Below are positions 31,075 through 51,375 of a stretch of 64,000 nucleotides of DNA, in pieces (within the stretch, counting starts at the first letter, position 1; each line of letters begins with the position of its first letter). The notes under the pieces are model-generated. The model did no database searches and had not been told where the DNA came from. It saw nothing but the letters and a program-made list of their open reading frames with translations. The stretch comes from Bacillus sp. EB01 (GTDB lineage Bacteria > Bacillota > Bacilli > Bacillales > Cytobacillaceae). The stretch lies in NCBI RefSeq assembly GCF_000613125.1, contig NZ_HG964497.1, positions 1,622,011 to 1,686,010 on the forward strand, given 5' to 3'. The translations under genes were made by a program, and so were the position numbers.

Positions 31075-31230
31075 AGTAAGCTATACGAGGACCGTCCGCC
31101 TTTATATGTATGGGCATCTAACCCACCCTCACATCACGCAATTGACGACTGGCGTCTAAGGAGGGGTAACCCTCCCACTGCATAACCGAGTGCTTCCATG
31201 TGTAACGGACAGGATAGCTTCGCCGGCCAA
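31075..31230 (-). ncRNA. EAR (epsC-type) processive antitermination RNA element, probable
   Basis: The 353-base gap between the phosphatase and galU holds a GC-richer, highly structured stretch. Read on the minus strand: GUCCG (31206-31210) pairs with CGGAC (31094-31098) as a closing stem. Inside are CACU/AGUG, GGAGG/CCUCC around GUUACC, and GACG/CGUC hairpins, plus a conserved-looking GCACUCGGUUAUGCAGUGG segment. Bacilli carry the EAR element (Rfam epsC family) in this operon position, between the kinase module and the glycan genes, where it lets polymerase read through distal terminators. The identification rests on position, strand and structure; a covariance search was not possible. Confidence 0.72.
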
Positions 31231-43737: not shown

Positions 43738-43777
43738 TCAACTTAACAAAAGCATACTAATTTTATAGAAATACTCA

Positions 43778-43880
43778 CTTATCAAGAGCAGGCGGAGGGA
43801 CAAGCCCTATGAAGCCCGGCAACCGGTCATTTTTTTAATGACACGGTGCTAATTCTTGCAGCATTTAGCTGAGAGATAAG
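43778..43880 (+). promoter_or_regulatory. SAM-I riboswitch (S-box)
   Basis: Outer stem CTTATC / GATAAG, with AAGAG-GGCGGAGGGAC, ATGAAGCCCGGCAACC, GGTGCTAATTC-GCAG and TGAGAGATAAG in the canonical order. It is on the plus strand and followed by a terminator. Binding of SAM is expected to favour termination, so the gene downstream is expressed when SAM (methionine) is low. Confidence 0.95.
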
Positions 43881-43904
43881 AGAGAGGCACACTATTTTTG
43901 TGTA

Positions 43905-43938
43905 AAAACCTCTTTCTTTTGAAAGAGGTTTTTTTTAT
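43905..43938 (+). terminator. Riboswitch-controlled terminator
   Basis: AACCTCTTTC / GAAAGAGGTT stem with eight T residues. The left arm (CCTCTTTC) is complementary to the GAGAGAGG region at the 3' edge of the S-box, giving a plausible antiterminator. Confidence 0.92.
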
Positions 43939-43980
43939 ACAAAGTAACACACAGCCACTACATAAAAGGAGGATTTTCAT

Positions 43981-46356
43981 TTGGAAACGAAACGAAAAAA
44001 TGTGAAGAGAATTGTAGGGTCAGTGGTTTTAAGCGGGGTTTTGTTAACCAGCTCACTACCAGTAAATGTATTCGCTACAGAGGCGCATGCCGAAAGAAAA
44101 CAAAGCCTGTTTAACTCCGAGCACTATGATTACCTCGTTTATGATGAGATTCAGGGTAAACTCAAAGAATTTAAAAAGAGTAAGAGAGTAAATGTTGAGG
44201 TAACAGGAAAGTCATCGACTGGAAGAAATCTTTATACAGTGACGGTATCAAGCGATGGGAAAACACAGGATGCTGAGTATAAAAAACTTAGAAAATTGAT
44301 GAGTGAAAATCCTGAAAAAGCGAAGGAATTTTTGGAGGAAAATCCTCAAGTAAAGGCCCCAATTTTAATTCATGCTTCCATTCATGGAACTGAATTTGTT
44401 GGAACAGATGCTGCCCTTCAGCTAATTGAAAGATTTGCGTTTGAAAATGACCAGGAAACACAACAAATTCTCGATTCTTATACTCTCGTTTTTAATGTGA
44501 ATGCAAATCCGGACGGCCGCATTGATGCCACACGATTCAATAGGCAGGGTATTGACCTTAACCGTGATTTTATTACACAGTCACAGCCAGAGACTCAGGC
44601 AGTTATTGAACAAATCACCGAGCTTAATCCGCTTGTATTACTTGATTTACACGGCTATGTAAAGCAGCGGGGTGTAAAAAACCATCCAGGTCTTATCCTG
44701 CCGGGTACGCCTCCACATAACCCGAATTATGAATACGACCTTCAATACAAATGGATGAATCAGCAGGCCGAAGCAATGGAAGCTGAGCTTGTAAGTGAAA
44801 GGGCAAATTACCAGACAGATCTTTATAAAACTATGGAAGGCACCCATATTCCGCTCCGTGATTCCAAGGACGGCTGGGATGTTTACCCGCCGATTTATAC
44901 TCCAGCTTATGCCCAGCTCCATGGCACCTACGGCTTTACCCTGGAAGCACCAACGAATGATTGGGATGGAGTCAAGTGGCAGGTAGATGCAGTAACAGGG
45001 GCGCTTAACTTTGCTGTGGAAAATAAGCATTGGATGCTCGAAGACCAGCTTGAGATTCTGAATCGAGGCGAGGAAAATTATCATCCGAATTACGAGAATC
45101 AAAGTTTCCCTGAAGCCTATATTCTCCCAGTTAATGAAGCGGATCCGACTGTTACCGAAAAGGCCGTTCAGCATCTCCTGAACAATGATGTCGAAGTCCA
45201 GAAGGCAAACAAAGGGTTTACAGCTGAAGGAAAGACATATGAAGCCGGCACGTATATTGTTGATTTGAACCAGCCTAAAGCATCGGTTGCAAATGCATTC
45301 CTTTGGGACGGCGAGGATATCACGAACGATATAGCTGCTATGTATGACATTTCTGCATGGAGCCTGCCTGAATTGTGGGGCTTTGAAGCAGTTGAGGCAA
45401 AATCAGATTTTACTGTCCAGGCAAAGAGAGTCGATAAAGTGAAGACAAAGGGCCAATTGATTGGGAAAGGTCCTTATGTAATCCCGAACTCCTCAAACGC
45501 TGCTGTTCAACTCGTTAACGAGCTTGTTGGCAAAGAAATTCCTGTAAAACGAGATGTTCAGGGTAATTTTTATGTAGATACCAACCGGGGCAGCATTGAA
45601 AAGGAGGTAAAACAATCCGGCTTAACCGTACAATCGAGTTCAGCTGGCATTCCCACTGAAGCAGAAGCTATCACCAAAGTAAAGGTTGCTATTTTACGAG
45701 ACGGCGGTATGGGGAAAGTACAATCCCACTCAGGCGTGAGAATTGCTCTCGAGCGCCTTGGCTTTGATGTAACCGAACTTCATCCGCAGCAGGTAGCTGC
45801 TTCAGGCCTTAATGGGTTCGATGTATTTGTGTATAGCGGAAGCGCAAATTTAGTCTCATTTAACTCCAGCACTGCCAACAAGGAATTTACTCTGGCAAAT
45901 GAAGCGGAATACAACGCTTTTAAAGAAAACGTGAAAACATTTGTCGAACAGAACGGCAGATTTATTGCAGTCGGTGCGGGTGCTTCCCGTGTTGCAAAAT
46001 CACTTGGGCTGACCGAGGTGAATGTAAATACAGGTTCTTCAAGCAGCAACGGTATTGTACGGGTTGACTATAAAGGGGCCGGAATCACAGCGGGATATGG
46101 AGGCAATGACGTGGGATTTGTTTATGGTCCTGTCTGGTATACGAATACAACCAATACAAATGTCGAAGCAACCTTTGCCGCAACTCCGGACTTTTTTGAA
46201 TCCGGCCACTGGAAAAACCGTGAAGCAGCGTCAGGCCAGGCTGTTATTGTTGAAGAAAGAGACCGCCCTGTAACGCTCATTGGCCTGGAAGCAGGCTTCC
46301 GTAACCATACAGATTACTTATTCAGACTTCTATCGAATTCAATTTTTGACAAGTAA
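43981..46356 (+). CDS. Secreted M14-family zinc carboxypeptidase
   Basis: A 791-residue exported metallopeptidase. TTG start at 43981 behind AAGGAGG. Signal peptide (basic start, SVVLSGVLLTSSLPVNVFA, cut near ATEA). The M14 site is intact: H135-x-x-E138 in HASIHGTEFV, substrate Asn-Arg in GIDLNRDF (194-195), third zinc His 224 in LLDLHGY, and catalytic Glu 322 in GFTLEAP. The C-terminal half (from about residue 560) looks like a glutamine-amidotransferase/ThuA-like fold (VKVAILRDGGMGKVQSHSGV, FDVFVYSGSA). Expression is under the SAM riboswitch, suggesting use of extracellular peptides for methionine supply; that link is inference. Confidence 0.9.
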   Translation: METKRKNVKRIVGSVVLSGVLLTSSLPVNVFATEAHAERKQSLFNSEHYDYLVYDEIQGKLKEFKKSKRVNVEVTGKSSTGRNLYTVTVSSDGKTQDAEYKKLRKLMSENPEKAKEFLEENPQVKAPILIHASIHGTEFVGTDAALQLIERFAFENDQETQQILDSYTLVFNVNANPDGRIDATRFNRQGIDLNRDFITQSQPETQAVIEQITELNPLVLLDLHGYVKQRGVKNHPGLILPGTPPHNPNYEYDLQYKWMNQQAEAMEAELVSERANYQTDLYKTMEGTHIPLRDSKDGWDVYPPIYTPAYAQLHGTYGFTLEAPTNDWDGVKWQVDAVTGALNFAVENKHWMLEDQLEILNRGEENYHPNYENQSFPEAYILPVNEADPTVTEKAVQHLLNNDVEVQKANKGFTAEGKTYEAGTYIVDLNQPKASVANAFLWDGEDITNDIAAMYDISAWSLPELWGFEAVEAKSDFTVQAKRVDKVKTKGQLIGKGPYVIPNSSNAAVQLVNELVGKEIPVKRDVQGNFYVDTNRGSIEKEVKQSGLTVQSSSAGIPTEAEAITKVKVAILRDGGMGKVQSHSGVRIALERLGFDVTELHPQQVAASGLNGFDVFVYSGSANLVSFNSSTANKEFTLANEAEYNAFKENVKTFVEQNGRFIAVGAGASRVAKSLGLTEVNVNTGSSSSNGIVRVDYKGAGITAGYGGNDVGFVYGPVWYTNTTNTNVEATFAATPDFFESGHWKNREAASGQAVIVEERDRPVTLIGLEAGFRNHTDYLFRLLSNSIFDK

Positions 46357-46831: not shown

Positions 46832-46859
46832 TTGCTTATTGGTTGAATTATCCTATAAT
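46832..46859 (+). promoter_or_regulatory. Candidate SigA promoter for the c-di-GMP riboswitch transcript
   Basis: TTGCTT, 16-base spacer, perfect TATAAT. The aptamer begins about 20 bases downstream. Confidence 0.65.
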
Positions 46860-46877
46860 AGTGATATAAACCATAAA

Positions 46878-46972
46878 TCGTACGATAATGGCAAAACCAT
46901 TGAAAAATGGTGACGCAAAGCTATAGGGGCTAAGATCAATTTGATTATGCTCGCCAGCTTCCGAATACGGAC
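46878..46972 (+). promoter_or_regulatory. Cyclic di-GMP-I riboswitch (GEMM-I)
   Basis: Canonical order of conserved parts: ACGATAATGGCAAAACC, a CCATT-GAAA-AATGG hairpin with GNRA loop, GACGCAAAGC (46912-46921), AGGGGCTAAG, ATGCTCGCCAGCTTCCGA. Downstream, CTCCT (46972-46976) is complementary to AGGAG of the ribosome site (46995-46999). This suggests translational control by sequestering the Shine-Dalgarno. No intrinsic terminator lies between aptamer and gene. Confidence 0.93.
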
Positions 46973-47004
46973 TCCTACGATTTGTGTTCATTTAAGGAGG
47001 AACT

Positions 47005-47163
47005 ATGGGGATTCATTTGTTATGGCCACAATTAAAAAGAAAATGGCATTCTTTAAGATTGAGATACCATGCTATACTACTCGAAGGCTGTCTGGATACC
47101 AAAATGAGATGCCAGTTAGAAAAGAGAATTTCCTATCATATGAGGAAATTAAGTGATTTTTGA
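47005..47163 (+). CDS. Small protein (52 aa) under c-di-GMP riboswitch control, unknown function
   Basis: ATG 47005-47007 lies five bases after AAGGAGG, which is the strongest ribosome site in the area, and is the first start after the riboswitch. The product MGIHLLWPQLKRKWHSLRLRY.. is very basic (many Lys and Arg), probably helical, and has no membrane helix or signal. It is recognisably similar to the 48-residue product at 51229-51375: both have LK-KWH-(V/L)RL-Y, then CLD-K, then an R-L-K-I-YH pattern. I know no family name. A role in c-di-GMP output (motility versus biofilm) is inferred only from the riboswitch. Confidence 0.78.
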   Translation: MGIHLLWPQLKRKWHSLRLRYHAILLEGCLDTKMRCQLEKRISYHMRKLSDF

Positions 47164-47165
47164 TG

Positions 47166-47193
47166 GAAGGCACCTTAAGGGGTGCTTTTTTAC
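47166..47193 (+). terminator. Terminator after the 52-aa gene
   Basis: GCACC / GGGTGC hairpin followed by TTTTTT directly after the stop codon. Confidence 0.82.
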
Positions 47194-50889: not shown

Positions 50890-51228
50890 CCTAATTTTAC
50901 CATATTACTTCGGGCATTATATTGTTTTATTAAACTCCCTCAATAAGAAGGAAAAGCGCCGGAACCTGACATTATTTTTTCCTTCCCGGATCAACCCATC
51001 CCGGTTATAAGCCCGGAATAGGGAACTGTTACTTAAAGGGTATGGCTCATCTTTAAACTTTTGTTTAATTTTCGACTAATGGTAGATGTCCAAGTACCAG
51101 CCCCCTGTACAAAACGACAAGTGCATGAAATAGGTCGGTTTTTTACCTAATCCATTTTGGACGAATCGACATTCCCCACATTAAAAGAGTGATATTATCC
51201 TGAAAAAGGCATGTGGGGTGAGGTTGGT
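50890..51228. other. Intergenic region upstream of the 48-aa gene
   Basis: Holds a weak copy of the dispersed repeat family (50940-51004, CAATAAGAAGGAAAAGCGCC and CCTTCCCGGATCAACCC) and the inverted repeat described next. No gene seen. Confidence 0.45.
51174..51218. promoter_or_regulatory. Inverted repeat just before the 48-aa gene
   Basis: CCCCACAT (51174-51181) and ATGTGGGG (51211-51218) form a perfect 8-bp repeat 29 bases apart, ending beside the ribosome site. Could be an operator or an RNA hairpin controlling translation. Confidence 0.45.
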
Positions 51229-51375
51229 ATGAGTTACTTTCATACATTAAAAGAAAAATGGCATAAAGTTAGGCTGTTTTATCTTAACTTGATTGTGAAT
51301 GACTGCCTTGATCCAAAGCTTAAGCGGGATTTGATTCGGAAGATAGACTATCATCAGCAAAGAGTTACTGATTAA
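51229..51375 (+). CDS. Small protein (48 aa), paralogue of the riboswitch-controlled 52-aa protein
   Basis: ATG 51229-51231 behind GGTGAGG. Product: MSYFHTLKEKWHKVRLFYLN.., then NDCLDPKLKRDLIRKIDYHQQR. It shares the LK-KWH-RL-Y start, the central CLD-K and the R-L-K-I-YH end with the protein at 47005-47163. It is followed at once by a strong terminator, which supports a real transcription unit. Unlike the paralogue it has no GEMM aptamer upstream. Function unknown. Confidence 0.68.
   Translation: MSYFHTLKEKWHKVRLFYLNLIVNDCLDPKLKRDLIRKIDYHQQRVTD

What the first reader, a model, noticed from the sequence alone, without database searches (positions are those of the whole stretch)
46832..47193. 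c-di-GMP-I riboswitch controlling an unrecognised 52-residue basic protein
A complete GEMM-I aptamer with its own promoter is followed by a 52-codon gene and a terminator, so the whole transcript is dedicated to one small protein. CTCCT directly after the aptamer is complementary to AGGAG of the ribosome site, which suggests Shine-Dalgarno sequestration. The protein has a paralogue at 51229. I know of no described family with this sequence, so this may be a new c-di-GMP output protein in Bacillaceae.
Basis: partly seen in the sequence, partly recalled or inferred. Interest (0 to 1): 0.78.

Follow-up and report, generated by a model that had tools for sequence, protein, structure and literature searches.

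The report
c-di-GMP switch for unknown hairpin protein
A bacterial RNA sensor for the signal molecule cyclic di-GMP sits in front of a gene for a tiny two-helix protein from a large, apparently undescribed family, and the RNA looks built to switch that protein on when the signal rises.

Summary
A c-di-GMP-I (GEMM-I) aptamer lies at 46880-46965 (79.6 bits, cut-off 35), followed by a 52-codon gene and a terminator hairpin. The protein is real: profile matches occur in 111 of 193 genomes of its GTDB family and 96 of 397 drawn from the order; median dN/dS is 0.12 over 312 pairs. Pfam, NCBIfam, PHROGs and PDB sequences gave no consistent match. GEMM-I precedes 107 of 170 distinct members and 31 of 64 in loci from other families. 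AlphaFold2 gives a two-helix hairpin (pLDDT 89).

The second pairing co-varies, also in diverged leaders and other families. This fits a translational ON switch: c-di-GMP stabilises P1 and frees ribosome site and start codon. Ligand response and direction are inferred. What the protein does is unknown; seven close relatives lie behind motAB, a lead towards motility.

The parts
46832..46859 (+). probable promoter: TTGCTT-16-TATAAT (-10 perfect, -35 weak)
   Evidence: sequence; -10-like hexamer in 88 of 103 GEMM-led members against 73 of 206 control windows; not listed by the consensus scan
46872..46882 (+). P1 5' strand, the switching strand (overlaps the start of the Rfam match)
   Evidence: MFE pairing; often ACACATAAATCG-like in homologues
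46880..46965 (+). c-di-GMP-I (GEMM-I) riboswitch aptamer core
   Evidence: RF01051, 79.6 bits, cut-off 35
46972..46976 (+). anti-Shine-Dalgarno CTCCT, sharing its last base with the P1 3' strand
   Evidence: at least 5 contiguous complementary nt to the SD in 86 of 102 leaders, 50 on average after shuffling
46976..46986 (+). P1 3' strand (pairs with 46872-46882)
46995..47000 (+). Shine-Dalgarno AGGAGG
47004..47008 (+). start-codon region TATGG, alternative partner of 46871-46875 (CCATA)
   Evidence: forms when the anti-SD/SD helix is forced; positional and permutation tests over the family
47005..47163 (+). gene of a 52-aa basic protein (pI 10.1), predicted two-helix hairpin
47165..47190 (+). 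intrinsic terminator hairpin, U run at its end
51229..51375 (+). paralogue of the same family, 48 aa, without GEMM-I

Best explanation
This is a stand-alone transcription unit in which a class-I c-di-GMP riboswitch controls translation of one small helical-hairpin protein of a new, widespread family. With little c-di-GMP, the 5' strand of P1 pairs with the start-codon region and CTCC pairs with the Shine-Dalgarno site, so translation is off. When c-di-GMP binds the aptamer it stabilises P1 (46872-46882 with 46976-46986). That takes the 5' strand away from the start codon and disfavours the anti-SD helix, so translation is on. The protein would then act by binding a partner; the neighbourhood of its nearest relatives outside the genus (behind motAB) makes a motility component the first candidate. 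Shown: aptamer match, gene family, purifying selection, association, conserved complementarities. Inferred: ligand response, ON direction, the protein's action.
For: Aptamer. Family and selection. Association: 107 of 170 members (103 at 32-62 nt before the matched domain, 4 at 194-358 nt) and, outside the GTDB family, 31 of 64 members in 13 of 19 families. Switch: over 79 non-redundant leaders the complementarity of the P1 5' strand has two main peaks, the P1 3' strand (z -12.4) and the start codon (z -15.2). The own start region fits better than permuted ones: z -3.6, p 2e-4 for 79 leaders; z -3.35, p 0.001 for 18 leaders under 50% protein identity; z -3.4, p 0.0012 for 31 leaders of other families, and z -3.05, p 0.003 for the 23 of them left after removing those like the first set or each other. 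Forcing P1 raises the mean unpaired probability of SD to start from 0.37 to 0.56, in 68 of 79 leaders; median cost of P1 is 3.2 kcal/mol. In the window, forcing the anti-SD helix makes CCATA/TATGG pair unasked. Hairpin. motAB.
Against: In the window itself P1 is already the minimum without ligand (-36.9 against -34.5 kcal/mol; P1 probability 0.47 on a slightly different stretch), so this copy may be leaky. In 11 of 79 leaders forcing P1 does not raise accessibility. Anti-SD/SD co-variation is not significant (p 0.08-0.12). 63 of 170 members and 33 of 64 in other families have no GEMM-I found, so the protein is not always under this control. Folding ignored ligand, pseudoknots and cotranscriptional kinetics. 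The z values of the positional scan treat related leaders as independent, and weaker dips (z -4.3 to -4.6) occur at -60, +85 and +90 too. The motility lead rests on one clade.
Confidence: 0.72

Rival explanations
1. Translational OFF switch. P1 and the anti-SD/SD helix are compatible as an H-type pseudoknot, because CTCC abuts the P1 3' strand and the SD follows it. Ligand-stabilised P1 would then hold the SD sequestered.
For: The order of the strands allows it, and anti-SD complementarity exceeds shuffles (86 of 102 with at least 5 nt against a mean of 50).
Against: It does not explain why the P1 5' strand is also matched to the start codon. The anti-SD does not co-vary significantly with the SD.
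Confidence: 0.17
2. Transcription attenuation: the leader switches between terminator and antiterminator, as in several other Gram-positive GEMM-I elements.
For: C. difficile class-I switches and B. thuringiensis Bc2 act at transcription (PMC6366702, passages); T5 runs lie between core and start in 19 of 101 leaders.
Against: Core and matched domain are only 32-62 nt apart in 103 of 107 GEMM-led members, little room for a separate terminator; 82 of 101 leaders have no T5 run.
Confidence: 0.05
3. On the separate question of the protein's action: it is not a motility factor but a nucleic-acid-binding, metal-binding or other regulatory hairpin, and the motAB neighbourhood is a local accident.
For: It is strongly basic (pI 10.1). 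Two histidines are invariant in 32 of 32 aligned members. Within 1.4 kb a MotA-type neighbour was found for only 7 of 170 members.
Against: No positive evidence for nucleic acid or metal; structural matches are generic.
Confidence: 0.6
4. The small frame is not translated and the transcript acts as an RNA.
For: Short frame; no product was measured.
Against: dN/dS median 0.12 over 312 unsaturated pairs and pN below pS in over 99% of 1229 pairs; homologues across many families.
Confidence: 0.01

Closest known systems
c-di-GMP-I (GEMM-I) riboswitch, Rfam RF01051
   Same: full-length aptamer match far over the cut-off
   Different: Expression platform: short leader, no terminator seen, in which the P1 5' strand is shared between P1 and the start-codon region. 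For the Vibrio cholerae switches Vc1 and Vc2 the passages read call the mechanism unclear or unknown (PMC4744006, passages).
Bacillus thuringiensis Bc1 and Bc2 switches
   Same: class-I aptamers in Bacillaceae; Bc2 is described as an ON switch (PMC6366702, passages), and for Bc1 RBS and AUG accessibility changes with ligand (PMC11218506, passages)
   Different: Bc2 acts by transcription read-through; Bc1 has a long platform with two terminators and its RBS and AUG are trapped, not freed, with ligand. Their targets are cap (collagen adhesion) and mcpE, not this family.
Bacillus methanolicus MGA3 c-di-GMP riboswitches
   Same: an RNA-seq survey lists four putative c-di-GMP riboswitches: before sinI, before a c-di-GMP turnover operon and before two genes of unknown function (PMC4342826, passages)
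   Different: I did not see those unknown proteins, so whether one belongs to this family is open; no family or mechanism is given in the passages read.
Small hairpin regulators of Bacillus: Sda (PF08970), Spo0E-like (PF09388), SinI (PF08671)
   Same: about 50 aa and two helices (recalled); a SinI is itself behind a GEMM-I in this genome
   Different: profile-profile comparison finds no relation (probability under 1%), while two halves of the family find each other at 99%

Membership tests
c-di-GMP-I riboswitch (RF01051) | covariance-model match over the gathering score | tested here: met
   79.6 bits against 35, positions 1-87 of 87
c-di-GMP-I riboswitch (RF01051) | binds c-di-GMP | not testable with these tools
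   needs in-line probing; some homologues of the class recognise cyclic AMP-GMP (PMC9495176, passage), and which ligand this one prefers was not tested
translational riboswitch | ligand-dependent access to SD or start codon | tested here: inconclusive
   alternative pairings conserved, P1-start pairing co-varying; no ligand experiment
Sda (PF08970) | profile similarity | tested here: not met
   hhalign probability about 0.1%; no Pfam hit
Spo0E-like (PF09388) | profile similarity | tested here: not met
   hhalign probability under 1%; no Pfam hit
SinI (PF08671) | profile similarity | tested here: not met
   hhalign probability 0.2%; no Pfam hit
any family of Pfam, NCBIfam or PHROGs | consistent match of several members | tested here: not met
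   of 32 members scanned, each listed family matched a single member, at E 0.0021 or worse; PADLOC was not searched
ferritin-like two-helix fold (EncB, EncC, Rru_A0973) | shared fold | tested here: inconclusive

The most novel reading that the evidence does not exclude
A widespread c-di-GMP output layer of the bacilli has been overlooked: through a translational ON riboswitch with start-codon capture, c-di-GMP induces a two-helix protein that binds the flagellar stator MotAB (or another motility part) as a brake, a riboswitch-made counterpart of PilZ-type motility brakes. Its invariant histidine pair would form a metal or partner-binding site.
Probability: 0.15. Interest if true: 0.85.

Novelty: new variant of a known kind. 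Interest (0 to 1): 0.63.

Why it matters
GEMM-I riboswitches were found in 189 of 193 genomes of this family, and one recurring target is a protein family that no library searched here names. If the switch works as inferred, it gives a compact, terminator-free translational ON design for c-di-GMP, usable as a reporter. It also makes a concrete question testable: what does c-di-GMP do in Gram-positive bacilli through a 50-residue protein, and is it motility?

Tried and rejected
Considered and rejected: relation to Sda, Spo0E-like or SinI proteins (positive control); a known family in Pfam, NCBIfam or PHROGs; a solved homologue by sequence; a constant operon partner: within 1.4 kb the commonest neighbour clusters are a divergent gene (47 members) and a convergent one (32 members). 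The count of leaders with at least 4 complementary nt between anti-SD window and SD (97 of 102) says little, as shuffled windows give 82 on average; at 5 nt it is 86 against 50. Anti-SD/SD co-variation was not significant. The structural look gave generic helical hairpins. Rru_A0973 (an encapsulated ferritin, recalled) aligns over 52 residues, model 1-52 on 18-69, so that residues 32 and 62, two of the five named in mutant titles, fall on the invariant H15 and H45. Hairpins of equal length align at the loop anyway, so this is a lead only. Foldseek against PDB could not be run.

Rows dropped before counts: near-identical leaders (102 to 79; 77, 41 and 18 at lower identity cut-offs); leader L119 skipped for want of a start, and L207 given another start; start codons elsewhere were picked by an SD score of mine. 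Four of 170 members under 44 residues were left out of tree and dN/dS (166 kept). dN/dS used pairs of at least 60% protein identity with at least 40 shared codons; of 1229, 915 were saturated and 2 gave no ratio, leaving 312, which are not independent. The 170 members are those in loci fetched by then, not every match, whose list was cut. The other-family set is 60 loci, one each from 60 of the 84 matching genomes outside the family, taken mostly from the top of the list; three of its leaders (L357, L365, L366) resemble one of the first set and were removed with five like each other.

Full report
What is there. The window lies in a 5.28 Mb single-contig genome. Its GTDB family includes Neobacillus and Robertmurraya, judging by record titles of matching contigs. 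At 46880-46965 on the + strand lies a full-length c-di-GMP-I aptamer (79.6 bits, cut-off 35), one of 12 in this genome. A 52-codon ORF follows at 47005-47163, then a terminator hairpin of -13.1 kcal/mol (z -3.9). The -10 hexamer TATAAT is perfect and the -35 weak; the consensus scan listed neither this promoter nor the terminator.

The association. A covariance model built from 24 GEMM-I sequences was run on 164 loci that hold members. Of 170 distinct member ORFs, 107 have a GEMM-I upstream on the same strand, 103 of them 32-62 nt before the matched domain. With 12 elements in 5.28 Mb I estimate less than one such pair by chance (inference). I then fetched 60 loci from other GTDB families: 31 of 64 members are GEMM-led, in 13 of 19 families, 28 of them at 31-51 nt. 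The own genome has three members: this one, the paralogue at 51229 without GEMM-I, and one at 2805912-2806058 behind another GEMM-I. So the link to c-di-GMP recurs across families but is not universal: 63 of 170 and 33 of 64 lack it.

The expression platform. Between aptamer core and start there is, in order, an anti-SD (literal CTCC in 67 of 102 leaders), the P1 3' strand, a short spacer, the SD and the start codon, which by my SD-scoring rule is GTG in 79 and ATG in 24 of 103 members. The typical P1 5' strand ACACATAAATCG can pair with CGATTTATGTG (P1) or with ATGTGTT around the start codon. Scanning 15-nt windows along 79 non-redundant leaders, complementarity to the P1 5' strand peaks at the P1 3' strand (z -12.4) and at the start codon (z -15.2); weaker dips (z -4.3 to -4.6) lie at -60, +85 and +90. 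The own start region fits better than permuted ones (z -3.6, p 2e-4). This holds for 18 leaders whose proteins share under 50% identity (p 0.001), for 31 leaders of other families (p 0.0012), and for the 23 of these that resemble neither the first set nor each other (p 0.003). Where the P1 5' strand reads TTTCAT instead of ACACAT, the start region holds ATGAAG. Anti-SD/SD matches of 5 nt or more occur in 86 of 102 leaders against 50 after shuffling, but do not co-vary significantly, as expected if most SDs are alike.

Mechanism. Forcing P1 raises the mean unpaired probability of the SD-to-start stretch from 0.37 to 0.56, in 68 of 79 leaders; the median free-energy cost is 3.2 kcal/mol, a size that ligand binding could pay (inference). 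In the window, P1 gives -36.9 and the alternative -34.5 kcal/mol; when the anti-SD helix is forced, CCATA (46871-46875) pairs with TATGG (47004-47008) without being asked to. The simplest reading is a translational ON switch. The main rival is an OFF switch by pseudoknot, which the strand order permits. Ligand binding and direction were not tested.

What the protein may do. In a FastTree of 166 members the window gene falls in a clade of 16 (midpoint-rooted, support 0.775). Fourteen of these 16 count as GEMM-led, one of them (L118) with a shortened aptamer of 31.5 bits. Seven of the 16 (L132-L136, L138, L139) lie downstream of motA and motB on the same strand; Pfam was run on L138 and L139 and confirms MotA and MotB there. 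In L138 the gap behind motB is about 44 nt and no GEMM-I was found; in the five others listed with motB a GEMM-I lies in between. One further clade member (L120) lies behind a GGDEF-HD protein gene. This is a lead towards motility, not proof: no other member showed a MotA-type neighbour within 1.4 kb. Profile comparison finds no tie to Sda, Spo0E-like or SinI proteins, with a working positive control.

What is known. Passages of PMC6366702: the functional C. difficile class-I switches are OFF switches at transcription, B. thuringiensis Bc2 is an ON switch at transcription, and the two V. cholerae ones respond in opposite directions without termination control. Passages of PMC4744006: no terminator or anti-SD is apparent for Vc1 and its mechanism is unclear. 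Passages of PMC11218506: Bc1 has two terminators and its RBS is trapped with ligand. Passages of PMC4342826: B. methanolicus has c-di-GMP riboswitches before sinI and before two genes of unknown function. PMC9495176 was seen in passages, PMC9262584 in a search listing only. In nine searches (four of the lists cut) I saw no title or abstract start that describes this protein family or start-codon capture by a GEMM-I P1 strand. The library lacks most subscription papers.

Verdict. A genuine riboswitch with a genuine target family that the searched libraries do not name. The RNA is a new variant of a known kind; the physiological role is open.

Noticed in passing
43776-46356: A SAM (S-box) riboswitch (82.4 bits), followed by what looks by eye like a terminator, stands before an M14 zinc carboxypeptidase gene, to my knowledge an unusual S-box target.
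   Followed up: partly
L006 and L009 (genome 1486718-1487560), L011 (genome 1525382-1525464): Three GEMM-I elements of the same genome, two of them 756 bp apart, each precede a 31-aa frame with CVRCGKK near its end; the two tested have no Pfam match. Another dedicated c-di-GMP mini-protein candidate.
   Followed up: partly
L013 (genome 1816596-1816688): A GEMM-I precedes a SinI anti-repressor (PF08671, 42.2 bits); the same arrangement is listed for B. methanolicus.
   Followed up: partly
51174-51218: Perfect inverted repeat CCCCACAT / ATGTGGGG encloses a TATTAT hexamer just before the paralogue at 51229; it may be an operator in place of the riboswitch.
   Followed up: no
G021:C1:1026218-1026967 (L122, L241): In the close relative G021 the 51229-type gene has a second neighbouring copy whose match contains an in-frame TAG.
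   Followed up: no
L118 1386-1450: A member whose aptamer match is only 65 nt and 31.5 bits, with the downstream platform kept: perhaps a decaying riboswitch.
   Followed up: no
31111-31225: epsC RNA (91.2 bits) on the - strand between genes that look like polysaccharide genes, an ordinary element.
   Followed up: no
L028 423-505 and L034 2664-2746: A second GEMM-I about 1 kb downstream of the family member, before a gene beginning MMGFLRDLGKFSGKAAGFVVGG.
   Followed up: no
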